A DNA stretch of 64,000 nt from Deltaproteobacteria bacterium. Its GTDB lineage: Bacteria > Desulfobacterota > Desulfarculia > Adiutricales > Adiutricaceae. Shown in pieces: positions 4,759 through 43,631 of this stretch. The notes under the pieces were generated by a model. It was given only the letters and a program-made list of their open reading frames with translations, had not been told where the DNA came from and did no database searches. Made by a program: the position numbers and the translations under genes. Location of the stretch: positions 1 through 64,000 of the forward strand of contig JAISEL010000037.1 of assembly GCA_031264185.1 (NCBI GenBank). The letters are read 5' to 3'. Each line of letters begins with the position of its first letter. Within the stretch, counting starts at the first letter, position 1.

Positions 4759-5058
4759 CTAATCCTGCAGACAGGAAGACCAGACTGCCCGTGGGACTTC
4801 AACATAAGTCGAATGCCCCTGGTCGCTTAGGAGCCGGTCGTAGACACCCCGGATTTTTACCTGAGCTCCAGTCAGGACCCGCACCGCTCTGGCCAGTTCG
4901 GCCGGTAAAACCCGGAGACAAAACCCGCACTGAGCGCCCAATGAATTCGGTCTGGCCATGACCCAGACTTTCAGCCCCTCTTTCTGAAGAGCTTCCTCGC
5001 CGGTCAGAGCCGCTCCGGTGCCGTCAAATGTCAGAACCTTCTCTTCAGGTTTATCCAT
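4759..5058 (-). CDS. DUF3343 putative Se/S carrier-like protein
   Basis: A 99-residue protein matching the DUF3343 pattern: an N-terminal strand (KVLTFDGTGAALTGEEALQ), a central helix and the conserved GAQCGFCLRVLP with cysteines at about 58 and 61, then VKIRGVYDRLL. The family is usually 70-90 residues and co-occurs with selenium use and YedF-like proteins, hence its description as a putative Se/S carrier; its biochemistry is unproven. Here it lies between the hydrogenase pair and a molybdenum/tungsten gene set, with selC 5 kb away, which fits a selenium-related role. The ATG has a GGATG sequence upstream. It probably forms its own transcript. Confidence 0.7.
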   Translation of the reverse strand: MDKPEEKVLTFDGTGAALTGEEALQKEGLKVWVMARPNSLGAQCGFCLRVLPAELARAVRVLTGAQVKIRGVYDRLLSDQGHSTYVEVPRAVWSSCLQD

Positions 5059-6314: not shown

Positions 6315-8057
6315 TTATTCCCCAAACTCCAAGACCCGGTCCAGGTCAGAATCGGTCACATCAAACGTTGACCTATGGGGTCCGACCTCCTCCTGACGGA
6401 AAAACTCCGGCAGACGATCGCTGGCCGAGGTCAGACCGGCTCTTTGATTAAAATCCACTTCAGTGGCCAGGACTCTCTGGCCTAATCCGTCTAAATCGGC
6501 TCTCTTCATGGACCAGCCGTAGCGGGCGTTTAACATGTCAACTACAGCCTCTATCGCCTCAGGAGTTTCAAAGAAAGCAAAAGAGACAAACATACAAAGA
6601 CCTAAGGTATCCACAGCTGCTGCTGAGATCTGGGTCCGGCGGGACAGTTCAGCCTGGCCTTCCGGGGACAAAGGATCAACGTCCCCGCCTAAAGCTAAGA
6701 TATTGGCTGCGTAACTGAAGCCGGCTGTGTGATCGGCGCCCTGAGGATTGGTGGCAAAAGTCACACCCTGCCCTTTGACACTTCTAGGGTCAAAGGCAGG
6801 CAGAGCCTGGCCCTTGACCTCGGCTACCCGTACAGCTCCGTAGACTTTACCTGTAACGGCCACGCCAGAACCTAAAATCCGGCCCAGAGGTGTACCCTGG
6901 CTAATCTGGGCTACGGCCTCAAGAGCGCCGGCGGCATCCCCGAACTCCAGAACCCCGGCTTCCATTAGAACAGCCACCGCCGCCCCAACATCAATAGTAT
7001 CCACCCCCGTATCGTCACAGAGGCGGTCGTATTGGGCCACTGAGTCTAAGTCAGTAATATCGGTATTGGGCCCAAAAGCCCACATGGTTTCATAGTCCGG
7101 CCACTTGCCGATCCTCTGGCCTAAGCGATCCGGAAAAACTCCGCTGCAGCGCATAACGCAACCGGTCATACAACCCCTGGCCACCCGACCCTGGCCGCCC
7201 CGTTCTTTGGTCAGCTGGTTTAATCTCTCTCCGGACAGGGTCTCAGGACTGTCAAAACGGCCGCTGGAAAAATTCCTGGTGGGCAGAGCTCCGGCCTCGT
7301 TAAAAAGACCCATCATGGCCGCAGAACCATACTCGGATAAACTGCGGCCGCAGACCGGGTGATCCAATAAAGCTTTGGTAAAACGTTTTGAGGCGCTGTT
7401 GAAGGCTTCGGGGTTAGCTAAGGTCAATCTGTTTTTTTTGGTCCCTGGCTTAATAATTATAGCCTTCAAGCCCTTAGAACCCATAACCGCGCCCAAACCG
7501 CCCCGGGCCGCATGTCTGGCCGGTTGGCCGTCTAAATCGGTCATGGCAATGGAAGCAGCAGCTAATCTGAATTCTCCGGCACGGCCTATAGTTATATAGC
7601 TGCTACCAGGTCCTGATTCCTCGGTCAGTCTGGCCACAGCCTCGTAGTTATTGAGTCCGCCCACCCGACAGGGCATAAGAACGGCCCCTTCCCGGCTGAT
7701 TTCCAGCTGCAGCCACTCACCTTTAGGGCCGGAATTTTCAATGACTAAAGCTAAGACGCCTAGACCAGCCAGATGGCCTCCGGGCTGACCGCCGCTATTG
7801 GATTCTTTGATACCGGAAGTCAAGGGGCTTTTGCCGCCCACTGACAGACGCCCGGAGTTGGCGCAGGCTGTACCGCCCAGCAGTCCGGGGGCAAAAACGA
7901 GTTTATTTCTGGGACCCAATGGATTAACCAATGGATCCACTTCCCTGGCCACAATGGCCGAAGTCAGGCCCCGTCCGCCCAAACCTTTATAGATTTCCGG
8001 AACATCAGAATAGGAGCATGTCCCGCTCGACATATCTACTCTTAAAATCTTAGCCAT
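6315..8057 (-). CDS. aor: Tungsten-containing aldehyde:ferredoxin oxidoreductase
   Basis: A 580-residue member of the AOR family. The N-terminus (KILRVDMSSG, then YKGLGGRGLTSAIV) and the GGTACANSGRLSVGGKSP segment are typical of the pterin-binding domain. The [4Fe-4S] cluster ligands are visible as C296, C300 and C304 (GCMTGCVMRC), with a fourth in GLCMF near residue 500. Family members interconvert aldehydes and carboxylic acids with ferredoxin, using a tungsto-bispterin. It is the last gene of mobB-lysR-aor, starting 8 bases after lysR. In an acetogen it could reduce acetate or oxidise amino-acid-derived aldehydes; the substrate cannot be read from sequence. Length is slightly below the usual 600-620 residues, but no domain seems lost. 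Confidence 0.88.
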   Translation of the reverse strand: MAKILRVDMSSGTCSYSDVPEIYKGLGGRGLTSAIVAREVDPLVNPLGPRNKLVFAPGLLGGTACANSGRLSVGGKSPLTSGIKESNSGGQPGGHLAGLGVLALVIENSGPKGEWLQLEISREGAVLMPCRVGGLNNYEAVARLTEESGPGSSYITIGRAGEFRLAAASIAMTDLDGQPARHAARGGLGAVMGSKGLKAIIIKPGTKKNRLTLANPEAFNSASKRFTKALLDHPVCGRSLSEYGSAAMMGLFNEAGALPTRNFSSGRFDSPETLSGERLNQLTKERGGQGRVARGCMTGCVMRCSGVFPDRLGQRIGKWPDYETMWAFGPNTDITDLDSVAQYDRLCDDTGVDTIDVGAAVAVLMEAGVLEFGDAAGALEAVAQISQGTPLGRILGSGVAVTGKVYGAVRVAEVKGQALPAFDPRSVKGQGVTFATNPQGADHTAGFSYAANILALGGDVDPLSPEGQAELSRRTQISAAAVDTLGLCMFVSFAFFETPEAIEAVVDMLNARYGWSMKRADLDGLGQRVLATEVDFNQRAGLTSASDRLPEFFRQEEVGPHRSTFDVTDSDLDRVLEFGE

Positions 8058-8065
8058 TATGTGTC

Positions 8066-8998
8066 TCAGCCATCTTTAGTTTTCGGCCGACGGTAGGTCA
8101 GAGGCATTTTTCCTTCCTTTTTTAGTTCAAAAAAGATATCCACCAGAGCCTGGGCCACTTGGGCGTTAAAGTGATCTTTTCTTCTAATTAGAAAAAAACG
8201 CCGGCAAGGACCAAACTCCAGCGGCCAGGCCACTAAATTAGTCATATCCAGAGTCGACAGAATCAGACTTGAAATAACCGTGGCCCCAAAAGCTCCTTGA
8301 ACCAGTGACATGGTAGGGCCCAGACCGGCCACCTCGGCCTTAAACCGAAAACGGCTGACCTCATCACCTAAGCTGGACAAAAAAGCCGCCCGGGTGCCGC
8401 TGCCGTCTTCTCTTAGTATTATAGGCCAATTGGCCAGTTCGGCGGGAGTTTTTGGCCTTGAGCCCATTTTAGCGGCCAGTTCGGCCGAAGCCACCAGAAC
8501 AAGCCGGTCGCTGGCAAACGGCCGCGACCAGATCTTCTCCGACTCCGAAACTACCGTGCCCACCAAACCCAGATCGAGATCGCCTTCGCCGACTAAACGG
8601 GCAATTTCCCGTGAATGGCCCTGAGTTAAAGTCAGAAACACGCGGGGATACCTCTGGCTGAAGACTTCCATAGCCGGAGGGACCAGAACCATAGAGGGAA
8701 CTGAAGAGGCTCCCACCGCCAGTTTTTCCTGGGCAATGGCCATCTGACGGTTAACAGCCCAGGCGGCCTGGCCGGCTGTCTCCACAATTTTAATGGCATA
8801 GGGAGCTAAGACCAGAGCAGCAGGCAGAGCTTTAACCCGGCGAGGAGTCCGCTCAAACAGTTTCTGACCTAAATATTCCTCCAGGCTTTTAAGGTTTTGG
8901 CTGACCGTAGGCTGGGACAGACCGAAAAACTTGGCAGTTTGGGAAAAACTCCGGGTATCCAATAGTTTTAAAAAAATTTCCAGTCTTTTTATATCCAT
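8066..8998 (-). CDS. LysR-family transcriptional regulator
   Basis: A 310-residue LysR protein: an N-terminal winged helix-turn-helix (residues 1-60, with SFSQTAKFFGLSQPTVSQNLKSLE) and a substrate-binding effector domain of periplasmic-binding fold. It lies between mobB and aor with gaps of 14 and 8 bases, so it probably controls its own operon or nearby molybdenum/selenium genes. Similar LysR proteins are annotated next to selenium-metabolism genes in anaerobes; the neighbours suggest the same here, but the ligand is unknown. The ribosome site before the ATG is weak. Confidence 0.85.
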   Translation of the reverse strand: MDIKRLEIFLKLLDTRSFSQTAKFFGLSQPTVSQNLKSLEEYLGQKLFERTPRRVKALPAALVLAPYAIKIVETAGQAAWAVNRQMAIAQEKLAVGASSVPSMVLVPPAMEVFSQRYPRVFLTLTQGHSREIARLVGEGDLDLGLVGTVVSESEKIWSRPFASDRLVLVASAELAAKMGSRPKTPAELANWPIILREDGSGTRAAFLSSLGDEVSRFRFKAEVAGLGPTMSLVQGAFGATVISSLILSTLDMTNLVAWPLEFGPCRRFFLIRRKDHFNAQVAQALVDIFFELKKEGKMPLTYRRPKTKDG

Positions 8999-9012
8999 AA
9001 AAAACCACTGCG

Positions 9013-9510
9013 CTATTTAAGACTCAGGCCTAATACAATCAATTCCGCTAACCTGTCGAATTCGTTCAGCCCCACCTTAGGTACTCCCGTCAGTTCCCAC
9101 GGTCCGTCAGTACAGACGGCCAGGTGAGGCGGACTGCTGACCAGGCCGTCAGATACCCCTTGCCTCAAAACCTCTATCTTGGGATAGGAGGTATTCTTGC
9201 CCCCTTCCAGTATTATTAGCCCGACCGGAAAATGGACCTTAAGATCCTCCGGGCCCAAACCGGGTGTTTCACAGGTCACCAAAAATCTGTTAGCTGAATA
9301 GACCGCAGTTCCGTAAGCCCCGGCCATTCTGGCGTTATAACTGTCAGTCCCGGGCACATCTGGCTGAAAATCATGGCCGTCATGCTTAATGACCGCGACT
9401 TTCTGGCCCCTTTTTAGCAGTTCAGGAATTAAACCTGTAATTAAATTGGTTTTGCCAACGTTTTTGGTCCCACAGACAGAAACTATGGGAGGATATAGTT
9501 TTGGCCGAAT
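9013..9510 (-). CDS. mobB: Molybdopterin-guanine dinucleotide biosynthesis adaptor MobB, apparent AUU start
   Basis: The first ATG in this frame (9357) would give only 114 residues and no P-loop. Reading back in frame adds 51 codons that encode the missing start of MobB: PPIVSVCGTKNVGKT (Walker A GTKNVGKT), then VAVIKHDGHDFQPDVPGTDS, the best-conserved MobB segment. The frame is closed by a TAA at 9532-9534, and no ATG, GTG or TTG lies between. The best start is ATT at 9508-9510, nine bases after AGGAAAAGG. The product is 166 residues, normal for MobB. MobB binds GTP and assists MobA in making the MGD cofactor used by formate dehydrogenases. It heads the mobB-lysR-aor run. Confidence 0.82.
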   Translation of the reverse strand: MRPKLYPPIVSVCGTKNVGKTNLITGLIPELLKRGQKVAVIKHDGHDFQPDVPGTDSYNARMAGAYGTAVYSANRFLVTCETPGLGPEDLKVHFPVGLIILEGGKNTSYPKIEVLRQGVSDGLVSSPPHLAVCTDGPWELTGVPKVGLNEFDRLAELIVLGLSLK

Positions 9511-9874
9511 AGTCTGGCACCTTTTCCTTTAAATTTAGAAACGACCTTAAAAATAAGTCAAAATATTATCTCACTTCCGGCCAAAACAATAAACCCCCCA
9601 GGCCAACGATTCCAGCCTAAAACTATTCCGGCCTAATCAGCGTTCAATATAGGCATCACATTAAAAAACAGCAGTTCTGGTTATTATAGCTTCCAGCATA
9701 CTTTATTTACAGATCTTTTTAAATAGCCGGTACAAAAAACGAAATGTTCGACCCAAACTTTACGTCAAGGTAGGGCAGTTAAGCATTCGCCAAAATTTTA
9801 TGACTTCCAATGGCTTTTGTACCCTAAATTTTGGGTTTATTGACGGCCCAAGCCTAATATTATAAATTTAGAGA
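9511..9874. other. Divergent intergenic region, mobB / selC
   Basis: No gene. It must carry the minus-strand promoter for mobB and the plus-strand promoter for selC, but no clear box pair was identified. Confidence 0.4.
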
Positions 9875-9971
9875 GGGAATATATGGGTTCTGGTGAACTC
9901 CTTGGTCTTCAAAACCAATGCTGGCGGCTGACCGTCGCCTAGGTGGGTTCGATTCCCACATGTTCCCGCCA
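9875..9971 (+). tRNA. selC: tRNA-Sec (selC), anticodon UCA
   Basis: An 8-bp acceptor stem (GGGAATAT with ATGTTCCC, one G-U pair) is followed by discriminator G and an encoded CCA. The anticodon arm is TTGGT-loop-ACCAA with UCA at 9909-9911. The long variable arm (GCGGCTGACCGTCGC region) and the T arm (GTGGGTTCGATTCCCAC) complete a bacterial selenocysteine tRNA. The long acceptor, UCA anticodon and large extra arm exclude tRNA-Ser. It decodes UGA as selenocysteine, so the genome should carry selA, selB, selD and at least one selenoprotein, most plausibly a formate dehydrogenase. Confidence 0.95.
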
Positions 9972-10296
9972 AAAATTCAGCCAAACAAACCTAAAAGAAA
10001 AGACATCCTTTAATTTACAGCAAAAATTACCGGTAAAACAGATTTTTTCTCCTGTTAAAGCTGATTCGGGTTAAGATAAAGATACCGGACCAAGGCGTTT
10101 GCTCCAGAAAGCCATTGATTTTATTAATAAACTAAATGTTCACTTGTTTATTTATTCAGATTATGGTGTTATATTTTTCACTGTTCTGGAAATTGGCATC
10201 TGGTCAGCCGGTGGCTCATCGTTTGGGCCACAGCGAAGAATATATTTTGGACTCAGTGGCGGGTAAATTCTCTTACCAGCAAAGCCGGAGTGACTT
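9972..10296. other. Intergenic after selC
   Basis: No coding potential and no clear terminator. The last bases carry a GGAG ribosome site for the next gene. Confidence 0.4.
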
Positions 10297-11061
10297 ATGC
10301 TAACTAACGCTAACTTTAATTTTAGTTATGATCCTGAAGATGAACTGTCTGATGTTTTCCTGGCTTCTTTTAGATTTTTCGTTAAAAAATACTCTGACAC
10401 CAGCTCTTTAGCCCTTAAAACTAGTTTTTCCCAGCAATACCTGGGATCAGTCCTGACCGGACGAAAAAAAATTACTCAGGAATCCATCAGACGCCAAATC
10501 GCCGGGGCTTTAGGTTTCCCAGAACGTCATTACGAAGATTTTCTGGACATCGGACGGACTATTTTAGCCGACCTGGAACCAAAGACAGCCGACCTTAAGC
10601 TTATTCCGGGCCTGGAACTGCTGAAAGACCGTGGCTATCTGGCGGTGCCATTTTCTAAGAACCTGACTTTAGCGCCCTCCGGCCGGTCTTTAGCCATAAC
10701 TTTCGAGGCCGAGTCCGGCAAGCTCTTTATTAACCCTAAACTTCACGGTCTTTCCTCGGTTAACGGTATTATAGGGGCCGGTTTTTTTGGCGATTATATG
10801 GAGCCGGTCATTACCAACGATTCTATCATTTTAATTAACCAGAAAGACAATAATCCCGGCAAAATGGAGGAAGGCCATATTTATGTCCTCAGCTATAATC
10901 CTAAGACCAAAGTAGCCCAAGCCAAAATAATTAAGTGGCAGGAGAAAGGCAAAAGCATTATCATCTGCTCCCCGTCCAATGATCCCTATAAACCGGTTTT
11001 CAGAAGCCTCAAAGACATTACTTTGATAGGCCGGGTGGTCAGTACGATTAATAATTTCTGA
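10297..11061 (+). CDS. XRE/S24-type repressor lacking the catalytic serine
   Basis: A 254-residue regulator with an N-terminal helix-turn-helix of XRE/phage-repressor type (about residues 35-75, SSLALKTSFSQQYLGSVLTGRKKIT) and a C-terminal LexA/peptidase-S24-like domain. The S24 active-site motif normally reads GDSMxP; here it reads GDYMEP (165-170), so the nucleophile is Tyr167. The following strand NDSIILIN and a downstream AKIIKW with the candidate lysine are kept. Without serine the protein should not self-cleave, so it probably acts as a stable or ligand-controlled repressor, as in other non-cleaving S24-like regulators. It stands alone with no phage genes near. The ATG has GGAG at good spacing. 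Confidence 0.75.
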   Translation: MLTNANFNFSYDPEDELSDVFLASFRFFVKKYSDTSSLALKTSFSQQYLGSVLTGRKKITQESIRRQIAGALGFPERHYEDFLDIGRTILADLEPKTADLKLIPGLELLKDRGYLAVPFSKNLTLAPSGRSLAITFEAESGKLFINPKLHGLSSVNGIIGAGFFGDYMEPVITNDSIILINQKDNNPGKMEEGHIYVLSYNPKTKVAQAKIIKWQEKGKSIIICSPSNDPYKPVFRSLKDITLIGRVVSTINNF

Positions 11062-11371
11062 CTCTATAACTATATACCCGTCATCCCCCTGTCTCAGCTG
11101 TTTTTTTATCCGGCCTCAACTCATATTTCTTAAAATACCTTCATGCCAGGCCACGCTTTTTTTACCTCTTGAAGAAAATAGCGCTCCGGTCCTAAGAGTC
11201 TTTCACCTGGAGGTTGCCTTGAAAAAAGGCCTGAATAAAGATATGTTTCTATAATTTCAGATTATTGACCTGTTAAAAAAAGAGAAAGCGTCTTTATTTT
11301 CTCGGCTGTCTTATTATGTCAGGCTGGGAAATATTCGTCTGGTTGAATCTAAGCTGACGGGAGGCCTCTTC
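11062..11371. other. Intergenic with possible gene debris
   Basis: No complete frame. Between about 11200 and 11360 several short frames look protein-like but are broken by stops. A GGGAGG ribosome site for nnr ends the stretch. Confidence 0.3.
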
Positions 11372-12919
11372 ATGTTCGTGACTTCTACTCAGGAAAGCCG
11401 GCAACTGGATCAGACAGCAATAGATCTGGGTCTGCCCAGCATAGTCCTAATGGAAAATGCCTCCCGCTCAATATTAAGGGCCTCTCTCAAGTTCTGGCCT
11501 GAGCTGGAAAGCAATCCGGAACTGCCAGTCGTGGTCATTGCCGGACCCGGCCAAAACGGCGGAGACGGTCTCGTTTTAGCCAGGCTTTTTCAGTCAATGG
11601 GTCACCCGGTTAAGATCGCCTTATTAGGCCGCGAGCCAGGAGGTAGCGCGGGTATAAATTTAGCCTTAGTCCGCAACTTAGGAATTCCGCTGGAGCACAT
11701 GTATAAAATTGATGATCCTTTTCCGGACATCCCTGCCCGGGCTTTACTGATTGATGCTCTTTTAGGTACCGGCTTAAACAGTCAGGTTACAGACTTAATG
11801 GCCATGGCTTTAGAGAAGATGAATATACATAACGGTCCCACTTTAGCTGTGGATCTGCCGTCGGGTCTTTCAGGGGATACGGGTTTATGCTTGGGACGAG
11901 TTAAAAAAGCCGATCTGACCGTGACGGTGGGCACATATAAAAAAGGACTCTTTTTAAATCAGGGCCCCATCGTCTCAGGTACAGTCATGCTAGGCGACAT
12001 CGGGCTGACTCCTCAGATGTTCCAAAAAGTAAACCCAAAAGGCTTTTATTTAGATGAATCATTAGCCAGAACATTTTTGCCCCCCAGGCCCGGATTTGGT
12101 CATAAGGGCACATTCGGCCATGCAGTCGTGGTCGGAGGTTCGGTCGGCAAAACCGGGGCCCTGGCTCTGGCTTCTTTAGGGGCTCTCCGCTCAGGTTGCG
12201 GACTGGTCACGGCCGGTCACCCCCAGAGTACGGGGGCCATAATGTCCCAGAAACTGACCTCGGCCATGACTTTGGCTCTGCCGGAAGAAGAGCCCGGTCA
12301 ACTTAGCCCTCTGGCAGGGGAAGTTCTGGTCAGATTTATGGATAATAAAAAAGCCTTAGGTTTAGGGCCCGGTCTTGGTCTGGGCCCAGGGGCCCGAAAG
12401 ACCGTCTCTCATGTTGTCAAGCAACTTAATAAACCTCTGGTTTTAGATGCCGACGCTCTGACCTTATTAAAAGGCAGCTTAAATATCCTGCCCCAAGCCA
12501 CTTCACCTCGGATTCTGACCCCTCATCCAGGGGAAGCGGGCCAGCTTTTAGACCTGACGCCTGCCGAAGTCCAGGCCGACCGTTTCCAAGCCCTGGACAC
12601 CCTGGCCGGGAGAAGTCAGGCCGTGGTGGTCTTAAAAGGGCAGCACACCCTAATAAAACATCCCCAATCCGGGCGTTACCTGGTCAACTCAACCGGCAAT
12701 CCGGCTCTGGCTGTTGGAGGTTCGGGCGATGTTCTGACCGGGATAATTACAGGTCTTCTGGCTCAGGGCTTAGAGCCGCTGGCAGCGGCCGGCTTGGGCG
12801 TCTATATCCACGGCCGGGCCGGGGATCTGGGAGTATTAAGATCGGGCCGCCGAGGTCTTTTGCCGGAAGAGATGGCCGGTTTTTTTCCGGAGATCTTCAC
12901 CGAACTTGAGTCTCTGTAA
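11372..12919 (+). CDS. nnr: Bifunctional NAD(P)H-hydrate epimerase / ADP-dependent hydratase
   Basis: A 515-residue fusion that repairs hydrated NAD(P)H. The N-terminal YjeF epimerase domain (about 1-215) shows AGPGQNGGDGLVLARLF. The C-terminal ribokinase-like dehydratase domain (about 225-515) shows LDADALTLL, TPHPGEA and NSTGNPALAVGGSGDVLTG, the ADP/substrate-binding end. Length and domain order are normal for bacterial Nnr. The ATG has a strong GGGAGG upstream. It is probably a single-gene transcript. Confidence 0.93.
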   Translation: MFVTSTQESRQLDQTAIDLGLPSIVLMENASRSILRASLKFWPELESNPELPVVVIAGPGQNGGDGLVLARLFQSMGHPVKIALLGREPGGSAGINLALVRNLGIPLEHMYKIDDPFPDIPARALLIDALLGTGLNSQVTDLMAMALEKMNIHNGPTLAVDLPSGLSGDTGLCLGRVKKADLTVTVGTYKKGLFLNQGPIVSGTVMLGDIGLTPQMFQKVNPKGFYLDESLARTFLPPRPGFGHKGTFGHAVVVGGSVGKTGALALASLGALRSGCGLVTAGHPQSTGAIMSQKLTSAMTLALPEEEPGQLSPLAGEVLVRFMDNKKALGLGPGLGLGPGARKTVSHVVKQLNKPLVLDADALTLLKGSLNILPQATSPRILTPHPGEAGQLLDLTPAEVQADRFQALDTLAGRSQAVVVLKGQHTLIKHPQSGRYLVNSTGNPALAVGGSGDVLTGIITGLLAQGLEPLAAAGLGVYIHGRAGDLGVLRSGRRGLLPEEMAGFFPEIFTELESL

Positions 12920-12981
12920 TTTGCTTTGAAAAAATATCTCCCAGAAGATATCAGATGATGAAGAATAGGAATACATTTTAG

Positions 12982-13164
12982 GATGAGACAGACGCTATAC
13001 ACCTTACTATTTACGAGCAAACGAAGCATATGACCGCTGGGGAGCTGAATTATTTTATACAAATGCAAATTGCTCCAATATATGAATATTATGGGTTTAA
13101 ACCTGTTTCCAATATTGAAGAACACAAATCCCCCAAAAAGCATAATCAAAGGACAATCGTATAA
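12982..13164 (+). pseudogene. Short open frame without start, possible remnant of a ~60-residue protein
   Basis: A 60-codon open stretch following an in-frame TAG reads as a credible small protein (AIHLTIYEQTKHMTAGELNYF, then GFKPVSNIEE) but has no start codon before its internal ATG at 13030. The style, a helix with the pattern 'IYExTKxMTxxE', is like the many small uncharacterised proteins often found near toxin-antitoxin or nuclease genes. No partner is visible. It may be a decayed gene whose start was lost. Confidence 0.25.
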
Positions 13165-13591
13165 GGAGAAAACTAAAAAACTGTAAAAAATCTTCGGCCG
13201 GAGGACATCCTGAAGGTACGGCTGCCTTCAAGCCTATGGATGAGGAGCAGTAATCAAACCTGCGGCCGGATAACAATTAAAGGTTCTGGCTGAGCCTGTA
13301 CCTACTACGGAAAGACGGAGGAACTCAACCAAATTATTAACAGCATCAAATATAGTTTATATTTAAAAATTTAAAATTATTATAGATGAAAATTAATTAG
13401 TTTTTTGTTTTTAAATAAATTCAGAGCTTAAAAAAATTCGCCGTTACTTTTACGTCTACATAAATAATGGGAACAGCTTACAGGCCCTTAACCTATGGGT
13501 CGATTCCATAAAGTCCGCCCATTTTGGCCCGATTTGTGCAGAGCAGTCTACGGTAATCTTTAGGTCTATTCTCTTTTCCAGGACTTACGCT
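13165..13591. other. Intergenic upstream of the exporter operon
   Basis: AT-rich core (13340-13430). No gene. It should contain the promoter of the MacA-like operon; no box pair stands out. Confidence 0.35.
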
Positions 13592-14803
13592 ATGAAATCT
13601 AAAAAATGGTCCTTAACCTTCCTGGCTTTGATTGTTACCGGCATGGTGGTTACAGTCTGGCGGCCATGGTCCAACGGGGTTCCGGTTAATTTTTACCGAA
13701 CTCAGCGTGTAATTAATAACCAGCTGCGTCTGGCCGTCAGCGCCACGGGAACTTTAAATCCGGTCCGTCTGGTCAATGTCGGCACCCAGGTCTCCGGTAC
13801 TATCCGGGAACTTCTGGTTGACTTTAACGATCAGGTTAAAGCCGGACAACTGATGGTCGTTTTAGACGATGATCTTTTCCAGGCCAAAGTAAGTATGTCC
13901 CGGGCCAATGTCAAAACGGCCGAAGCCCAGTGTTCTTTAGCTCAGATCAAATACGACCGCCTGGTCAAACTGAGGCAGGCCGGAGCCACTCCCCAGGAAG
14001 AACTGGACACGGCCAAGGCTAATTTAGATATTGCCGAGGCCGGTCTGGAACAGCAGAAAGCGGCTTTGAATCAGGATCTTTACAATTTAAACAATACCAG
14101 AATCCAAGCCCCCATTGACGGAGTGGTCATTAACCGGGCTGTGGATGTGGGCCAGACCGTAGCCGCCAGTTTTCAGACCCCGACTTTAATTGACATCGCA
14201 GGCGATCTGACCGAAATGCAGATTAACGCCAGTTTTGCCGAAGCCGACATAGGCCGCCTGAAACCAGGATTAAAAGCCTCCTTTACAGTTGACGCCTTCC
14301 CCGGTTCGACTTTCCAGGGAGTTCTCAGGCAGATCCGCTTGAATCCCACCATTACGTCCAATGTGGTAACCTATGACGTGGTGGTCGATGTGTCCAATCC
14401 CGACGGTCGGCTGCTGCCGGGCATGACCGCTTACGTTGATATTGAACTGTACCGGGAAGACAATGTTTTACTGATTCCCAATGCGGCTTTAAATTACCGG
14501 CCCTCCAGAACTCCCTCCTCCGGTCAGGACCCTCTGGCTTCGGCCGCCCAGACATTAACGGACACCAGCCCAGAAAATGCTCCCCAAACCGGCGAAGTTT
14601 ATGTTTTAACATCCGACAGCCGGCCAAAAGAAGTGGCCTTGCAACTGGGTGCCACCGATCTGAGATCCACAGTTGTTAAATCCGGGAACCTTAAAGTCGG
14701 GGACCAAATCATTATTGGGGAAAATGTCCAAAATGACGCTGACCAGACTCTCTTCTCCCGGGCGGCCGGCAACCGCAGGCCACCCAGAGGCGGGAGATTC
14801 TAA
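13592..14803 (+). CDS. MacA-like periplasmic adaptor (HlyD family)
   Basis: A 403-residue membrane-fusion protein. One N-terminal membrane anchor (residues 7-24) is followed by a biotinyl-lipoyl half-motif (GTLNPVRLVNVGTQVSGTI), a helical hairpin (about 100-165), the second lipoyl half (IQAPIDGVVINRAVDVGQTV), a beta-barrel and a membrane-proximal domain. It links an inner-membrane ABC transporter to an outer-membrane channel. The TAA is followed directly by the ATG of the ATPase gene, so the three genes form an operon. No TolC homologue is in the window. The substrate could be a peptide, glycolipid or siderophore; nothing here decides. Confidence 0.87.
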   Translation: MKSKKWSLTFLALIVTGMVVTVWRPWSNGVPVNFYRTQRVINNQLRLAVSATGTLNPVRLVNVGTQVSGTIRELLVDFNDQVKAGQLMVVLDDDLFQAKVSMSRANVKTAEAQCSLAQIKYDRLVKLRQAGATPQEELDTAKANLDIAEAGLEQQKAALNQDLYNLNNTRIQAPIDGVVINRAVDVGQTVAASFQTPTLIDIAGDLTEMQINASFAEADIGRLKPGLKASFTVDAFPGSTFQGVLRQIRLNPTITSNVVTYDVVVDVSNPDGRLLPGMTAYVDIELYREDNVLLIPNAALNYRPSRTPSSGQDPLASAAQTLTDTSPENAPQTGEVYVLTSDSRPKEVALQLGATDLRSTVVKSGNLKVGDQIIIGENVQNDADQTLFSRAAGNRRPPRGGRF

Positions 14804-37516: not shown

Positions 37517-38485
37517 ATGCCCAGATACAGAACACTCCTGGCCGGAGGAGCCGGTTATTTAGGTCAGATGATAGCTAAAACCCTTCTGGCCACCGGCCGC
37601 CGGGTCACAGTTCTGGACAATTTACTCCATGGGCAGGAACTCAGTCTGACCGGACCTGATTTTTCCTTTATCCAGGGAGATATCCGGGATATAAGTCTCG
37701 TCCGGAGTCTTATGGCAGACCATGAAGAGGCCGTTTTACTGGCTGCCTTAGTGGGCGAGCCGGCCTGCAATCTTTGCCCCCAGGAGGCTTTGGAAATCAA
37801 TTATCTGGCCGCTTTAAACCTGGCCGAAACGGCCCGGGCCACCGGAGTCAAACGTTTTATTTTCGCCTCAACCGATTCCTGTTACGGGGTGAGGGAAAAG
37901 GAAATACTGACCGAACTCTCCCCTCTGTCCCCCATATCACTGTACGCTGATTTAAAAGCCCGGGCCGAGACTGCTATTTTAGCCCGAGGCTTTGAAAAAG
38001 AATTTTCTCCGACTGTTTTAAGGATGGCCACGGTCTACGGTTTAGCTCCCCGGATGCGATTTGACCTGGCCGTCAATCTTCTGGCCCGAGAGGCCACTTT
38101 AAAGGGAAAAGTCAAAATTTTCTCCGGTGAGCAGTGGCGGCCCATGGTCCATGTGGCCGATGCGGCCCGGGCCTTTCAGCTGACTTTGGACGCTCCGCCG
38201 GAATTAGTGGCCGGGCAGATATTTAATGTCGGCTCCGACACCCAAAATATCCAGTTCAAAGCTTTAGGCCGCCTCTTAGCCGAAACCGTGCCAGGCACTG
38301 TCATTGAAACCGTGCCCCAGGTTCCTGATTTAAGGGACTATTTTGTCAGTTTTAGAAAAATACAAAAAATTTTAGACTTTCAGCCAAGCTTTTCTTTGGC
38401 CGACGGTCTTAAAGAAATCAATAAATCTTTAAAAGAGGGCCTGTTTCCCGACCCCTACGCCAAACAGTATGCTAACTGCCGGTAA
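37517..38485 (+). CDS. NAD-dependent epimerase/dehydratase (SDR, nucleotide-sugar type)
   Basis: A 322-residue extended short-chain dehydrogenase. GGAGYLGQMIAKTLL (Rossmann, GxxGxxG) opens the protein; the active-site pattern is altered: the usual Ser/Thr is found in FASTDSCYG and the YxxxK is YADLK. Nucleotide-sugar enzymes normally have these. I start at the ATG 37517, which has GGAG upstream, rather than the TTG at 37481. It would convert a nucleotide sugar, probably as the first enzyme of a five-gene cluster; the aminotransferase gene overlaps its end by 17 bases. Confidence 0.85.
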   Translation: MPRYRTLLAGGAGYLGQMIAKTLLATGRRVTVLDNLLHGQELSLTGPDFSFIQGDIRDISLVRSLMADHEEAVLLAALVGEPACNLCPQEALEINYLAALNLAETARATGVKRFIFASTDSCYGVREKEILTELSPLSPISLYADLKARAETAILARGFEKEFSPTVLRMATVYGLAPRMRFDLAVNLLAREATLKGKVKIFSGEQWRPMVHVADAARAFQLTLDAPPELVAGQIFNVGSDTQNIQFKALGRLLAETVPGTVIETVPQVPDLRDYFVSFRKIQKILDFQPSFSLADGLKEINKSLKEGLFPDPYAKQYANCR

Positions 38486-39749
38486 AAAAAATATCCCCCT
38501 GACACCTTTGCCCAGGTTCCTGCCCTTTGCCCCGCCTCTGATGGGCCAGAGGGAACTTAAAGAAATTGCCGGAACCTTAAAGTCCGGCTGGCTGACAACC
38601 GGCCCGAAAGCCGAAAGATTTGAAGCGGCCATGGCCGAATATCTGGGCGCCCCATCGTCTTTAGCCGTGTCTTCCTGTACCGCAGCTCTCCACCTGGCCT
38701 TACTGGTCTTAAACTTAAAGCCAGGAGAGGGGGTTATAACCACGCCTTTGACTTTCGCCTCCACAGCCCACGCCATAATTTACTGCGGCGCCCGTCCTTT
38801 TTTAGCCGACATAAGCCCGGACACCGGCAATTTAGATCCCCAAAAGGTCCTGGAGTTTATAGAAAACGAGTGTGTTACCGGCCCCGACGGCCGGCCTGTT
38901 CACCGGGCTTCCAAAGTAAAAATTACGACCCTGCTGCCGATCCACTACGGCGGACACCCGGCTGATCTGCCGGCTTTCTGGTCCCTGGCCCGAGAGTATC
39001 AGCTTAATATTCTGGAAGACGCAGCTCACGCCACAGGCACATTTTTAGGCGACCTCCCTGTAGGACATCCAGACCTGCGCCCGCCCCAGGCCCCGCCCGG
39101 CATGACGGCTTTTTCTTTTTACGCCACTAAAAACCTGGCCACCGGCGAAGGCGGCTTACTGACCGCCTCCAGTCCCCTTTTACTGGACCGGGCCCGGAAA
39201 CTGTCCGCTTACGGTCTGTCCGACGCCCGGCGCATCTGGGGCCGTTACGCTCCCCAGGGCACCTGGGTTTACGACATAGAAGAACTGGGCTATAAATATA
39301 ATTTTACCGACATTCAGGCCTCCTTAGGGCTGGTCCAGTTAAGCCGCTTAAGGGGCATGCTGGAGGCCCGGAGGCTTCGGGCCGACCTTTGGACTAAAAT
39401 TCTGGCCGAATTGGACGATTTGGTTATTCTGCCCAGGGAAAGAAGCGGGGCTAAGCCGTCGTGGCATCTTTATCCTTTAAGAGTTAATACTGAAAGATTA
39501 AAAATAAGCCGGGATGAACTGATCGTCAGACTCAGGGAACTTAACATCGGCACCAGTGTTATGTTTATACCTATCCATTATCATTCCTATTATCAAAAAT
39601 CCTTAGGCTACGTGCCCGGCTCTTTTCCCGAAGCGGAGAGCTTTTTCCAAAAGGAAATCAGTCTGCCCGTATCGCCGGCCGCTTCCCTCAAGAATATCCG
39701 GTCAGCGGCTAATCTGACTGTCAATTTAATAAAAACCTGGGCCAAATAG
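38469..39749 (+). CDS. DegT/DnrJ/EryC1 PLP-dependent aminotransferase
   Basis: A 426-residue sugar aminotransferase. Recognisable: GWLTTGPKAERFEAAMAEYLG at the N-terminal side, SSCTAALHLALL, the LEDAAHATG aspartate that binds the PLP ring nitrogen, and FSFYATKNLATGEGG with the Schiff-base lysine near residue 221. Enzymes of this class transfer an amino group from glutamate to a keto-sugar nucleotide. It overlaps the epimerase by 17 bases, which suggests the pair makes an amino sugar. A 40-residue insertion (about 130-150) carrying charged residues is unremarkable. Confidence 0.92.
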   Translation: MLTAGKKNIPLTPLPRFLPFAPPLMGQRELKEIAGTLKSGWLTTGPKAERFEAAMAEYLGAPSSLAVSSCTAALHLALLVLNLKPGEGVITTPLTFASTAHAIIYCGARPFLADISPDTGNLDPQKVLEFIENECVTGPDGRPVHRASKVKITTLLPIHYGGHPADLPAFWSLAREYQLNILEDAAHATGTFLGDLPVGHPDLRPPQAPPGMTAFSFYATKNLATGEGGLLTASSPLLLDRARKLSAYGLSDARRIWGRYAPQGTWVYDIEELGYKYNFTDIQASLGLVQLSRLRGMLEARRLRADLWTKILAELDDLVILPRERSGAKPSWHLYPLRVNTERLKISRDELIVRLRELNIGTSVMFIPIHYHSYYQKSLGYVPGSFPEAESFFQKEISLPVSPAASLKNIRSAANLTVNLIKTWAK

Positions 39750-40242
39750 ACTCTCGGAGTCTCAAAACTGACCGTCAGCCACCCCCGGATAAAACAGGGG
39801 GCTTATAGGAGCCCTGGACTGACCAGGGAAGCGGTAACCGCCCTGCTGTATTTTTGCAGGCAGTCCGGCGGCGGGAGGCTCCAAAATCTCCGCCCTCATG
39901 AAGTCTGGGGTTCAAGACCAGCCAATGGCAGGTTTGAGACGGGTCAGGACCTGACGCCTGCGGAAAACATTTCTGCTAGCGGTTCCAAAGGCCCTTCTTT
40001 TTCAACCCGTAACGGCATTTTTAAGGGTTCGTATGCGGCTTTAAGGCTTGTTCAGCGCCAAAATCCTTCCGGCCCGCGTTCTAATTTTAATAAGCCGGTC
40101 AGTGTTATCCGTAACCCATAAGTATGACCGCCTGATTCAGGGAGCGGACGGATACGGATATTTCGTTTCTAACTTTAACTAAACTTCAGGAGGCGGCGTC
40201 CCCAACGGCCTTTCAGCCGGGCAGGCAGCGCCGAAGATTCGG
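39750..40242. other. Intergenic within the biosynthetic cluster
   Basis: No open frame and no recognised element. GC content is coding-like, so a lost gene is possible. The following methyltransferase start has only a weak ribosome site. Confidence 0.35.
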
Positions 40243-40974
40243 ATGACCAAAAGCCATCTGTCCAATGACTATGAAAAATATTTTATCGTAAACGGGGTTC
40301 ACATAGGCGAATACGAGGCCATGTACCGCAACTGCCGGGATCCCTGGCGGATTGAAGAAACAGGCGTCCGTCTGGATATGAAGGCCGCCGTTATCCTCCT
40401 GGATTACTGCCAGGGACCTTTGAATAAAGCCCTGGACGCCGGAGCCGGCAACGGCCTTTTTACCGAACAGATTGTCCGGCACCTGTGGGAAAAAAACCAT
40501 AAATGTGCGGTCACGGTCAGCGATATCTCGACTACTGCCTTAACTTTAGCCGCCAACCGGCTGTCCGGTCCAGGAAGTCACGGCCGGCCCGATCCCATAG
40601 GTGAACCGGTGCCGCCCTCCCGGGGCACGAGACTTGATTATGTAGCCTTTGATTTAAGGTGGGCTAACTCCGATCTGTGTCCCTGGCCGCCGGATAATTT
40701 TGATTTAATTATCCTGTCGCAGGTTGTATGGGGTTTACTGGAAAATTTAGGACAGTGCCTGGAGGGACTGGCCCGCTTAACCCGGCCGGGCGGCTACCTT
40801 CTTATTTCCCAGCATTTTTTTAAACCCGGTCAGCAGGAATATGGTCTGGGTCTGGTGGAGAACCCCGATGATCTGTCTTTATTTGTCCGTCAGGCCGGCT
40901 ATCAGCTCATCCACAGCCTGGAGACCGACCGGGACTTCAATCACCACTGGGCCGGCCTGTGGCAGTGGAACTGA
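40243..40974 (+). CDS. Class I SAM-dependent methyltransferase
   Basis: A 243-residue methyltransferase with motif I LDAGAGNGLFTEQI (about 63-76), an acidic end of strand 2 (VSDIS), and motif IV-like FDLIILSQVVWGLLEN. It resembles the UbiE/type-11 group. It overlaps the next methyltransferase gene by 16 bases, so the two are coupled. The substrate is unknown; the neighbouring sugar enzymes suggest a carbohydrate or lipid-linked acceptor. Confidence 0.83.
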   Translation: MTKSHLSNDYEKYFIVNGVHIGEYEAMYRNCRDPWRIEETGVRLDMKAAVILLDYCQGPLNKALDAGAGNGLFTEQIVRHLWEKNHKCAVTVSDISTTALTLAANRLSGPGSHGRPDPIGEPVPPSRGTRLDYVAFDLRWANSDLCPWPPDNFDLIILSQVVWGLLENLGQCLEGLARLTRPGGYLLISQHFFKPGQQEYGLGLVENPDDLSLFVRQAGYQLIHSLETDRDFNHHWAGLWQWN

Positions 40975-41909
40975 CCCATACTCCCGTCTGCCGTCTCTGC
41001 GGGCAGGGCCCTTTGGAGCCCCGCCTGGTTTTTCGCGCCCCGACTTATTCTTTATCCGGGGATTTTTATCTGGTGGCCTGCTCTAAGTGCGGAACCTGGC
41101 AGATTAATCCCCATCCGGGCCAGAAACTGTGTCAGGCTTATTTCTCCCGGCCGGAACTGTGGGCCGAAGGCTTGGATCCTGACAATAACCCGGTCTCACC
41201 GGTTAAAAGAGCTGAGGAAAGACTTAAAGAATATATTATCTATGCCAGGGCTGTGAATCATTTTTTACCAAAAGGCGGTCTGGTCATGGATATAGGGGCC
41301 GGAACCGGCTTAATGCTGTCTTTAATCCCCGATTCTTTTTCCAGACTGGCCATTGAACCTAATCAGGAGGCAGCCGAGGTAGCCAGAAGCCGGGGGCTGG
41401 AAGTTGTCAGAGAGTGGGCCGAAAATTTAAATTTTTCTCATAAACCCCTGTCTGGCCTTATTTTTAACCAGGCCTTAGACCATCTGCCCAGACCGGATAT
41501 AATATTAAACCGTACTTTAAACCGCCTCACTCCCGGGGGTCTTATTTTAATTACCGGACTTATTAATCCCTTATCTCTGCCTGCCCGGCTCTACGGCCAG
41601 GGACACCGCCTGTGGAATCCTTTCCATCAGATATATCCGCCTCTTTCGGCTGTTCAAAGCGTTCTGGCGGCCTACGGTCTGGAGACTGTCGGGGTCTGGC
41701 GGCCTTATTTCAATACGCCTTACGGAAACACCGTAAAACTTATAGCTGATTTTTTTAAGCTTATGGGGGCCCTGTTCATCCGGCCCAAAGGAGCCGTATC
41801 TCCGCCCTGGCCGGGCAGTACCTATTCTCTTCTGGCCCGGAAAAAAGTTCTCTTTAAACCTCTGTCCGCCCGCTCTCCCCAGGCCGCGCCCATAGGCTCC
41901 GCCTATTAA
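40959..41909 (+). CDS. SAM methyltransferase with N-terminal zinc-binding motif
   Basis: A 316-residue protein. CRLCG (residues 10-14) and CSKCG (about 42-46) form an N-terminal zinc ribbon, as in C-methyltransferases that act on nucleotide sugars and in related polyketide or saccharide enzymes. The SAM-binding motif MDIGAGTGLMLSLI (about 109-122) and the post-motif LIFNQALDHLPRPD follow. The combination is common in surface-polysaccharide clusters. It overlaps the previous gene and is 27 bases before the asparagine-synthetase-like gene. Confidence 0.8.
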   Translation: MAVELTHTPVCRLCGQGPLEPRLVFRAPTYSLSGDFYLVACSKCGTWQINPHPGQKLCQAYFSRPELWAEGLDPDNNPVSPVKRAEERLKEYIIYARAVNHFLPKGGLVMDIGAGTGLMLSLIPDSFSRLAIEPNQEAAEVARSRGLEVVREWAENLNFSHKPLSGLIFNQALDHLPRPDIILNRTLNRLTPGGLILITGLINPLSLPARLYGQGHRLWNPFHQIYPPLSAVQSVLAAYGLETVGVWRPYFNTPYGNTVKLIADFFKLMGALFIRPKGAVSPPWPGSTYSLLARKKVLFKPLSARSPQAAPIGSAY

Positions 41910-41936
41910 GCAGTACATTAACCCAGAGGAAACTCA

Positions 41937-43631
41937 ATGTCTTTAGCCATTCACAACCGGGCCGGAATATACAGGCCCGGCCAGGGCCCAGAAATATTTT
42001 TAGCCCACGGCCGCGTTTTTACCCCGACTGACGACAGCTGCCATGATCTCTTTCGCCGCCTGGCCAGTGATCCTCAAATCCTAAACGATTTGGAATCCGA
42101 TTTAAGTCTGGCCTTCTACCGCCCCGAGGACGACAGCCTGATCCTGATCCGGGACGCCTGCGGGGCCACACCTCTCTTTTTGGCCAAAACTCCTGAGGGA
42201 GACTGGGGCCTGGCTTTTACTCTGGCCGATCTTTTTAATTTACTGGGCCGGGTGCCGGACATAAACGAAGAAACTTTCTATGATTTTCTGGCCACCCATT
42301 ACCGGTATATCTTCCGAGAGCCCCAAAGAACATTTCACCGGGGGGTTATCCAGATTCCGGCCGGACATTACGCGGTCATAAACCGTCACGGACTTTCAGT
42401 TAAACCCTGGCTGAAACTGACTTTTGACCCCGAGGCCTCGAAAATGGATATCTCTGAGGCCGGACAGAAATATTTAACCCTGCTCAAAGAAAATGTCCGA
42501 TGGCGCTTACAAGCCCTGTCGCCGGAGAATCTGGCTTTCAGTATATCTTCGGGCATGGACAGCAGCACCGTGGCCTCCCTGGCCGCCAGCATCATAGGGC
42601 CCGTTGAGACCTGGTTTATGGCTTATAAAGATCAGGCCCACAGTCCTTACGACGAAACGAAGGGGGTCAAGGCTCTAATCCAGGATAAAGGCTGGACCTT
42701 AAACCGCCTGTCCCTGTCTTCCCCTGATTTATTAAAAGAAACTTCTTCTCTTTTGGCCAAAACCCGGGCCCCCATAATTACGGTCACCTGGCTGGCCCAT
42801 TATGTCCTGGCCAAAGCCGCCGCCCAGACCGGCTATAAGTTCCTTTTCTCCGGTTTAGGCGGCGATGAGTCTCTGGCCGGGGAGTTTGAGCACTTTTTTC
42901 TTTTCTTTGCTGATCTTAAAAGCCGGGGGCAGACCGATCTTCTGAATGAAGAAACCAGGGCCTGGATTAAACTTCACGATCACCGTGTTTTTAAAAAAAG
43001 CCCCCAGGTCCGGGACGACTGGTTTGACCGCAACCTGGACTTTAAGTCCGGTGAAATAAAAGTTGACCAGATCCGCTATCAGGCTTACCGGAGGTTCTTT
43101 GAGCCCGGATGGGTGGAAGCTCTGGAAAAGAGAATCCCCCCGCCGCCCATGCCCAGACCGTATCCCTATTTTCTGTCCAACCGCCTGTATCAGGAGATGA
43201 ATTACGAAACGTCTCCGCCCACTTTGTGGAGTGAGACTTTAAGCTCACAGGCCGGGGGTATTAAAGGCATCTTTCCTATGGCCAGTCCCCGCCTTTTCCG
43301 GCTGGCTTTGAGTCTGCCCGGCACGTTTAAGTACCGAAACGGTGTCACTAAAATGTTCCTGAGGCTGGCTACCCGGGATCTATTGCCAGACTCTACCCGT
43401 CTTAATCCGGTCAAAACCGGTTTTAACGCCCCTTTAGATCTCTGGCTGCAGGACTACCGTCTGGCCAAAGAGGTCCTCGATCTTTTAACGGACGGTCCTT
43501 TATGCCGTCTGGGCTGGCTTAAAAAAGGCGCTCCGGAAGAACTGGTGACAGCCCACTTAAAAGGTGAGGCCAATTATATGATGCTCCTGTGGCCTTTAAT
43601 TGTGACCAGTCTTTTTTTGGAGGGCAAATAA
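41937..43631 (+). CDS. Asparagine-synthetase-like enzyme without the Cys2 nucleophile
   Basis: A 564-residue protein with a class-II glutamine-amidotransferase-like N-terminal domain and an Asn-synthetase C-terminal domain. The PP-loop ISSGMDSSTVAS (near residue 203) binds ATP, and FSGLGGDESLAG supports the synthetase fold. AsnB normally starts MCGI, where Cys2 releases ammonia from glutamine; this chain begins MSLAIHN with no cysteine near, although AGGAA at proper spacing fixes the start. Such Cys-less members include beta-lactam synthetase, carbapenam synthetase and lasso-peptide cyclases, which form amide bonds without glutamine. It may amidate or cyclise a product of the cluster. Confidence 0.83.
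   Translation: MSLAIHNRAGIYRPGQGPEIFLAHGRVFTPTDDSCHDLFRRLASDPQILNDLESDLSLAFYRPEDDSLILIRDACGATPLFLAKTPEGDWGLAFTLADLFNLLGRVPDINEETFYDFLATHYRYIFREPQRTFHRGVIQIPAGHYAVINRHGLSVKPWLKLTFDPEASKMDISEAGQKYLTLLKENVRWRLQALSPENLAFSISSGMDSSTVASLAASIIGPVETWFMAYKDQAHSPYDETKGVKALIQDKGWTLNRLSLSSPDLLKETSSLLAKTRAPIITVTWLAHYVLAKAAAQTGYKFLFSGLGGDESLAGEFEHFFLFFADLKSRGQTDLLNEETRAWIKLHDHRVFKKSPQVRDDWFDRNLDFKSGEIKVDQIRYQAYRRFFEPGWVEALEKRIPPPPMPRPYPYFLSNRLYQEMNYETSPPTLWSETLSSQAGGIKGIFPMASPRLFRLALSLPGTFKYRNGVTKMFLRLATRDLLPDSTRLNPVKTGFNAPLDLWLQDYRLAKEVLDLLTDGPLCRLGWLKKGAPEELVTAHLKGEANYMMLLWPLIVTSLFLEGK

What the first reader, a model, noticed from the sequence alone, without database searches (positions are those of the whole stretch)
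37517..43631. Uncharacterised biosynthetic cluster with a Cys-less asparagine-synthetase-like enzyme
Epimerase, DegT aminotransferase, two methyltransferases (one with a zinc ribbon) and an AsnB homologue lacking Cys2 lie on one strand with two overlapping gene pairs. The combination suggests a methylated amino sugar that is amidated or acylated, or a small cyclic amide like those made by beta-lactam synthetases. No glycosyltransferase, polymerase or transporter is attached, so the product may be a free metabolite or a decoration for the LPS made with rfaE2 and uppP downstream.
Basis: partly seen in the sequence, partly recalled or inferred. Interest (0 to 1): 0.62.

Follow-up and report, generated by a model that had tools for sequence, protein, structure and literature searches.

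The report
Amino-sugar operon, probably for flagella
Termite-gut bacteria carry a conserved five-gene pathway that probably builds an unusual methylated amino sugar, finished by an asparagine-synthetase relative that has lost its glutamine-cutting cysteine, and the sugar is more likely meant for the flagellum than for a free metabolite.

Summary
The five genes are real and intact (37517-43631). They form a conserved operon of the termite/cockroach-gut family that contains Candidatus Adiutrix. A reading frame for the AsnB-like protein is present in 32 of 37 family genomes, and 17 of 36 fetched neighbourhoods keep all five genes in order. The missing Cys2 is real: the start codon is secure, and none of 30 aligned rows has Cys at position 2. 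The Cys-less proteins form one clade. The ATP-pyrophosphatase motif and the catalytic-type lysine are invariant; AsnB's E348 and TTIRAS motif are replaced. The predicted fold matches TsnB9, AsnB and beta-lactam synthetase.

The chemistry reads as C4 oxidation (Cj1427-like), C4 amination (ArnB/PseC-like), sugar C3-methylation (the zinc-ribbon enzyme's model matches MtmC/TcaB9/KijD1 best), NodS-like methylation, and glutamine-independent amide formation.

The destination is probably the flagellum. The endosymbiont that lost flagellin, FliF, Maf and NeuB lost or degraded these genes, yet keeps Wzy_C; three motile relatives keep the pathway with no Wzy_C found. Physical linkage to flagellar genes is only modest; LPS decoration remains a serious rival. 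Nothing was tested at the bench.

The parts
37517..38485 (+). Extended SDR enzyme, proposed NDP-sugar C4-dehydrogenase (Cj1427-like; STDSCYG + YxxxK, not the TDE motif recalled for 4,6-dehydratases)
   Evidence: Pfam Epimerase 8.7e-39; best PDB match 6vo6 at E 7e-44, next at 1.8e-23; no NCBIfam equivalog cut-off met
38469..39749 (+). DegT/ArnB/PseC-like PLP aminotransferase, proposed C4 amination of the 4-keto sugar
   Evidence: Pfam 2.4e-94; PseC 297 bits against cut-off 423.5; PDB ArnB 1mdo 6e-59
39750..40242 (.). Non-coding insertion: dispersed intergenic repeat, not part of the pathway
   Evidence: 73-78% identical pieces at L095 17011-17471 in the same genome; no significant match to the query proteins
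40243..40974 (+). MT1, NodS-like SAM methyltransferase (DPW motif), proposed N-methylation of the amino sugar
   Evidence: Only PDB match by sequence is NodS 3ofj 1.8e-6; profile: CurJ 5.8e-10, NodS 1.7e-9
40959..41909 (+). MT2, zinc-ribbon (4 invariant Cys) short relative of sugar C-3'-methyltransferases
   Evidence: AlphaFold model pLDDT 90.4; Foldseek ranks 1-18 all MtmC/KijD1/TcaB9; Z 20.2-23.0 against 17.1 or less for the rest
41937..43631 (+). AsnB-like amide ligase without Cys2, trimmed glutaminase-type N-domain, intact ATP-pyrophosphatase site
   Evidence: Pfam Asn_synthase 1.1e-33; A1 alignment and residue counts; model pLDDT 90.3, TsnB9 Z 27.1, AsnB 22.7, beta-lactam synthetase 22.5

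Best explanation
The operon makes and finishes an unusual amino sugar on a nucleotide carrier, most likely for flagellar (Maf-type) glycosylation. Proposed order: the SDR enzyme oxidises C4 of an NDP-sugar (possibly a heptose); MT2 methylates C3 of the 4-keto intermediate; DegT aminates C4; MT1 methylates the nitrogen or a hydroxyl; the Cys-less AsnB-like enzyme adenylates a carboxylate with ATP and joins it to an amine, with no glutamine hydrolysis, giving an amide. The product would be passed to the genome's Maf/GT island. Shown: gene content, conservation, single origin of the Cys-less clade, retained ATP site, fold relationships, loss pattern. Inferred: every substrate, the order of steps, which carboxylate and which amine react, and the destination. 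My estimates for the parts: nucleotide amino-sugar module 0.85; glutamine-independent amide or acyl ligase 0.7; flagellar destination 0.5.
For: Enzyme types. MT2 models best onto C-3'-methyltransferases of dTDP-sugars, which is consistent with an SDR that yields a 4-keto sugar; TcaB9's TLCH histidine aligns with the invariant His of MT2. AsnB-like: S204, G206, D208, D310, E311 and K493 in 30 of 30 rows; K493 aligns with beta-lactam synthetase K443. Related genomes outside the family keep a Cys-less copy with a fuller N-domain beside MT1 and near a second AsnB that does have Cys2, as if the two roles had split. Conservation. A third methyltransferase type follows degT directly in 4 loci, and its paralogue is the gene next to fliH in 6 of 12 fetched loci, including the window's own genome (FliF/G/H by Pfam in the own genome only). 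MT1-MT2-asnB lies 0.5 kb from a flagellin gene in G032 (L041), epimerase-degT 5 kb from flagellin in G018 (L085) and about 1 kb from a motB-fliL-fliM run in G011 (L084).
Against: Flagellar genes were found in only 3 of 48 cluster-gene neighbourhoods (0.55 Mb), none at the ancestral five-gene locus; with several flagellar loci per genome this is weak by itself. The window locus neighbours uppP and rfaE2, which hints at LPS. G002 has flagellin and Maf but no asnB, epimerase or MT1 match (83% complete). Strong NeuB matches occur in 29 of 37 family genomes only. In G023 MT2 is still an open frame. The loss argument rests on one lineage. Many flagellated relatives outside the family lack the pathway.
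Confidence: 0.5

Rival explanations
1. The same amino sugar decorates LPS or another envelope polysaccharide, with uppP and rfaE2 as functional neighbours.
For: UppP follows the cluster in 18 of 36 loci and RfaE2 often; a polyprenyl-phosphate sugar transferase (Bac_transf 2.9e-61) lies near epimerase-degT in G018; the SDR's closest solved relative is the capsular heptose enzyme Cj1427 (the link of entry 6vo6 to Cj1427 is recalled).
Against: G023 keeps an intact Wzy_C protein but lost the pathway; G011, G018 and Smac51 keep the pathway with no Wzy_C match. The neighbourhood is broad synteny, and the genes lie away from uppP in the Adiutrix genus.
Confidence: 0.25
2. Chemistry variant: P0005 makes a primary amide on a uronic-type sugar with free ammonia or with ammonia from another glutaminase, instead of coupling an acid to the amino sugar.
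For: The ATP-pyrophosphatase site is intact and the glutaminase site is dead; in related genomes a Cys2-bearing AsnB sits in the same cluster.
Against: No uronic-acid dehydrogenase lies in the operon; no second PF00733 protein was found in the window's genome; the AsnB glutamate E348 is replaced by Leu in 29 of 30 rows and Ile in one.
Confidence: 0.15
3. A free small metabolite, such as a cyclic amide of beta-lactam-synthetase type.
For: The closest folds include beta-lactam and carbapenam synthetases; no transporter or glycosyltransferase sits in the operon.
Against: The partner enzymes are of sugar-nucleotide types; near-universal retention within one family and loss together with the flagellum fit a surface structure better.
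Confidence: 0.07
4. P0005 is simply the organism's ammonia-dependent asparagine synthetase.
For: It is the only PF00733 protein found in G000.
Against: 101.9 bits against the curated cut-off 267.1; the TTIRAS stretch reads TVTWLAH and E348 is Leu; GatB is present, so a tRNA-dependent route is possible; Smac51 carries a separate, much better-scoring PF00733 protein.
Confidence: 0.03

Closest known systems
Beta-lactam synthetase, carbapenam synthetase and other AsnB-like amide synthetases; TsnB9 hydroxyamidotransferase
   Same: AsnB fold, adenylating site kept, catalytic lysine position; beta-lactam synthetases also lack Cys2 (recalled)
   Different: 20% identity or less in the structural alignments, shorter N-domain, sugar-operon context, no ring-forming partner genes in the operon
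Shewanella sfmABCDE flagellin-modification operon (PMC3765264; passages read)
   Same: Flagellin modification with a methyltransferase and a predicted carboxylate-amine ligase
   Different: Its ligase is ATP-grasp, and a PseI-like SfmA is in the operon; here the ligase is AsnB-like
C. jejuni di-O-methylglyceroyl pseudaminic acid (PMC3068675; abstract and passages read)
   Same: Amide-linked, methylated acyl group on a flagellar amino sugar
   Different: Different genes (Cj1295); nonulosonate core
C. jejuni Cj1427 GDP-heptose C4-dehydrogenase (PMC10680097; passages read)
   Same: Closest solved relative of the SDR enzyme (entry identity recalled)
   Different: In C. jejuni the 4-keto heptose goes to an epimerase and a reductase, not to a 4-aminotransferase
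Sugar C-3'-methyltransferases MtmC, KijD1, TcaB9
   Same: N-terminal zinc ribbon and methyltransferase fold over residues 3-298
   Different: MT2 ends where their C-terminal domain begins (model aligned to residues 6-269 of about 405)

Membership tests
Asparagine synthetase B (glutamine-hydrolysing) | N-terminal nucleophile Cys2 | tested here: not met
   0 of 30 aligned rows have Cys at position 2; start codon secure
Asparagine synthetase B (glutamine-hydrolysing) | Score over the curated cut-off TIGR01536 | tested here: not met
   101.9 against 267.1 bits
Asparagine synthetase B (glutamine-hydrolysing) | Catalytic Glu348 and the TTIRAS stretch (roles recalled) | tested here: not met
   Leu307 in 29 of 30 rows; TVTWLAH in the window protein
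AsnB-like adenylating amide synthetases without glutaminase (beta-lactam synthetase type) | ATP-pyrophosphatase loop and catalytic Lys | tested here: met
   SSG[LM]DS and K493 invariant; K493 aligned with K443 of beta-lactam synthetase
AsnB-like adenylating amide synthetases without glutaminase (beta-lactam synthetase type) | Tyr-Glu catalytic dyad of the beta-lactam forming enzymes (recalled) | not tested
   No residue-level superposition was made; the alignment does not cover that stretch
Sugar C-3'-methyltransferase (TcaB9/TylC3 type) | Zinc ribbon plus methyltransferase fold | tested here: met
   4 invariant Cys; Z 20.2-23.0
Sugar C-3'-methyltransferase (TcaB9/TylC3 type) | C-terminal domain of the family | tested here: not met
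   316 aa; alignment ends at chain residue 269 of about 405
PseC / ArnB 4-aminotransferase equivalogs | Curated cut-off | tested here: not met
   297 against 423.5 and 245.9 against 631 bits; family DegT clearly met
NodS N-methyltransferase | Curated cut-off NF041650 | tested here: not met
   33 against 300 bits
Maf-type flagellin glycosylation system | Flagellin and a Maf protein in the same genome | tested here: met
   G000 has 7 flagellin matches and 1 PF01973 match
Maf-type flagellin glycosylation system | Gene product shown to modify flagellin | not testable with these tools
   Needs mass spectrometry of flagellin

The most novel reading that the evidence does not exclude
Adiutricaceae flagella carry a C-branched, N-methylated 4-amino sugar (possibly a heptose) not described before, acylated by a glutaminase-dead AsnB that arose once by loss of Cys2 and then by shrinkage of the glutaminase domain, and this whole pathway decayed when one lineage became an intracellular, non-flagellated symbiont.
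Probability: 0.25. Interest if true: 0.7.

Novelty: new variant of a known kind. Interest (0 to 1): 0.52.

Why it matters
If right, it adds AsnB-fold ligases to the tools that bacteria use to acylate flagellar sugars, gives a stepwise series (Cys2-bearing paralogue, Cys-less full-length, Cys-less trimmed) for the conversion of an amidotransferase into a glutamine-independent ligase, and offers a surface-glycan marker of a poorly cultured termite-gut family whose loss tracks the move to life inside protist cells.

Tried and rejected
Hidden Cys2 by a misassigned start: rejected. A gene remnant in the 493-bp gap: no significant match to the third methyltransferase or to any other query protein; it is a repeat. 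Third methyltransferase missing in the window genome: not missing, one copy lies beside fliH on another contig. P0001 as a classical 4,6-dehydratase: no equivalog cut-off met and the motif is TDS (motif role recalled). Conserved extra genes inside the cluster: none found by clustering of the neighbourhood frames. A wider search for MT1 in the phylum at E 1e-25: 6 of 395 genomes, all in this family, so no better-known cluster turned up there. phmmer of P0005 alone against solved structures found nothing. Literature: searches (with 56 and 59 for the organisms and Cj1427) listed no paper that joins an AsnB-like enzyme to flagellar glycosylation; only listings and starts of abstracts were seen except for the papers cited; subscription papers are not held. 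The missing flagellin in G026 first looked like a counter-example, but G026 has FliF.

Rows left out: alignment A1 holds the window protein and 29 of the 36 fetched neighbourhoods; left out were L037 and L039 (full frames, uncertain starts), L044 (distant) and L045-L048 (partial). The residue counts use A1. Of the sequences in A4, frames with non-ATG starts were used without their first codon. The folds of MT1, P0001 and P0002 were not predicted.
Full report
What is there. Five intact genes lie on the + strand between 37517 and 43631: an extended SDR enzyme, a DegT aminotransferase, two SAM methyltransferases and an AsnB-like protein. Genes 1-2 and 3-4 overlap by 17 and 16 nt. A 493-bp non-coding insertion separates DegT from MT1. 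It is a dispersed intergenic repeat; in the four other loci of the genus that gap is below 100 bp. The window belongs to a 4.4-Mb draft genome in the family of Candidatus Adiutrix (termite and cockroach gut Deltaproteobacteria; the habitat is recalled). Named loci came from the genome-contig scan, whose 33 hits are Deltaproteobacteria MAGs, Ca. Adiutrix, strain Smac51 and one Proteobacteria MAG.

Conservation. The AsnB-like protein was found as a reading frame in 32 of 37 family genomes (G000-G036); some copies are cut by contig ends. G023 holds a decayed copy. G002, G005, G009 and G031 gave no match, although G005, G009 and G031 hold the epimerase and G009 and G031 hold MT1. Of 36 neighbourhoods fetched, 17 have all five genes in order; L046 and L048 among them are cut at contig ends. 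UppP follows in 18 of 36. In the Adiutrix genus the set is split: MT1-MT2-asnB in one place and epimerase-degT in another. In Smac51 asnB stands apart as well. Retention despite being split argues that the genes share one function. In a phylum sample MT1 at E 1e-25 occurs in 6 of 395 genomes, all of this family; the one family genome in the sample without it is G023.

The AsnB-like protein. No Cys2 is hidden by a wrong start, and none of 30 aligned rows has one. The Arg of the RD motif lies at rank 65-88 in the 28 family rows and at 127-132 in the two outside rows, so the glutaminase-type domain has been trimmed by about 50 residues. The two outside relatives (G040, G058) keep a longer N-domain, still without Cys2, and in both the gene stands beside MT1 (in G040 with MT2 between) and near a second AsnB that begins MCGIAG or MCGLCG. 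GATase_7 still matches the G058 copy at 8.9e-21, while P0005 matches only Asn_synthase. All 30 Cys-less rows form one side of a branch, 98/95; two of the four Cys2 rows have long branches, so the rooting is uncertain. The ATP-pyrophosphatase residues and K493 are invariant. The position of AsnB Glu348 is Leu in 29 and Ile in 1 of 30 rows. In the profile alignment K493 falls on K443 of beta-lactam synthetase, and the AsnB stretch TTIRAS falls on TVTWLAH; the catalytic roles of those residues are recalled. The AlphaFold model (pLDDT 90.3) matches TsnB9 best (Foldseek E 1.1e-19; Z 27.1 over 459 residues, rmsd 3.2), then AsnB (Z 22.7) and beta-lactam synthetase (Z 22.5). It is therefore an adenylating amide-forming enzyme by fold and site, and unlikely to use glutamine. 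Its substrates are unknown.

The sugar enzymes. The SDR enzyme's best solved relative is 6vo6 (E 7.4e-44; the next is 1.8e-23). I recall this entry as Cj1427, which is a GDP-heptose C4-dehydrogenase (PMC10680097, passages). The aminotransferase is ArnB/PseC-like. MT2 is the clearest new assignment: Foldseek ranks 1-18 are all sugar C-3'-methyltransferases, Z 20.2-23.0 against at most 17.1 for the rest, and TcaB9's TLCH histidine aligns with an invariant His. Enzymes of that group act on 4-keto sugars (recalled), which would fit the first step. MT2 lacks their C-terminal domain. MT1 resembles NodS, but at profile level the polyketide methyltransferase CurJ scores equally well, so N- rather than C- or O-methylation is only a guess.

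Destination. Three lines point to the flagellum. Yet Wzy_C is intact there, and in G011, G018 and Smac51 the pathway, flagellin and Maf persist without a Wzy_C match (9 genomes tested for Wzy_C, 5 over the cut-off). (2) A third methyltransferase type follows degT directly in Smac51, G032, G038 and G058, and its paralogue stands beside fliH in 6 of 12 fetched loci, including the window's own genome; FliF, FliG and FliH were confirmed by Pfam there only, and read by eye elsewhere. The degT-linked and the fliH-linked copies fall on different sides of a well-supported branch. (3) Flagellar genes lie beside cluster genes in 3 of 48 neighbourhoods: L041, L085 and L084. That is little more than chance could give, and all three are in one genus. 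The genome also has a Maf island (radical SAM, Maf, GT2 with TPR, GT4-type, GT9; G000:C58) and a neuB locus with a CMP-sugar synthetase (G000:C32).

Against the flagellar reading: the five-gene locus is next to uppP and rfaE2; G002 has flagellin and Maf but none of the three pathway genes tested (83% complete); strong NeuB matches (E below 1e-20) occur in 29 of 37 genomes; the loss argument is one event; and flagellated genomes outside the family mostly lack the pathway. I put the flagellar destination at about 0.5 and LPS or another polysaccharide at 0.25.

Known systems. Flagellar sugars carrying methylated acyl groups in amide linkage exist (C. jejuni, PMC3068675, abstract and passages), and Shewanella's flagellin-modification operon holds a methyltransferase and a predicted ATP-grasp carboxylate-amine ligase (PMC3765264, passages). 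An AsnB-fold enzyme in that role was not found in the searches listed under Tried and rejected. The finding is thus a new variant of a known kind: a flagellar or envelope amino-sugar pathway with an unusual ligase.

Noticed in passing
window 39750-40242 and 36301-36990; window 5390-5957; L095 17011-17471: Dispersed non-coding intergenic repeats, 73-78% identical pieces; hand-picked frames cover only about 62% of the window.
   Followed up: partly
window 9875-9971: A selenocysteine tRNA gene.
   Followed up: no
L113 (G000:C32) 6917-7768: A protein of the MbnB/TglH/ChrH family (PF05114, 2.2e-12) lies between neuB and a zinc-ribbon methyltransferase with a CMP-sugar synthetase next to it; a gene in the same position accompanies neuB in Smac51 (L115, by eye).
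   Followed up: no
L114 (G000:C58) 4341-13856: Maf island beginning with a radical SAM/SPASM gene and including GT2 plus TPR and GT9 proteins; similar gene order by eye in Smac51 (L116), G010 (L118) and G018 (L120).
   Followed up: partly
L091 (G023:C3) 7331-9872: Decay of the pathway in the endosymbiont is uneven: MT1 stub, MT2 still open, asnB full of stops.
   Followed up: partly
L035 and L036: Two AsnB homologues in one cluster, one with and one without Cys2, plus an aldo/keto reductase (Pfam in L035) and, in L036, a radical SAM/SPASM gene.
   Followed up: partly
several flagellin frames, e.g. G000:C157:13181, G007:C159, G013:C95: Flagellin_N matches in open frames of about 1,650-1,700 codons, far longer than common flagellins.
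   Followed up: no
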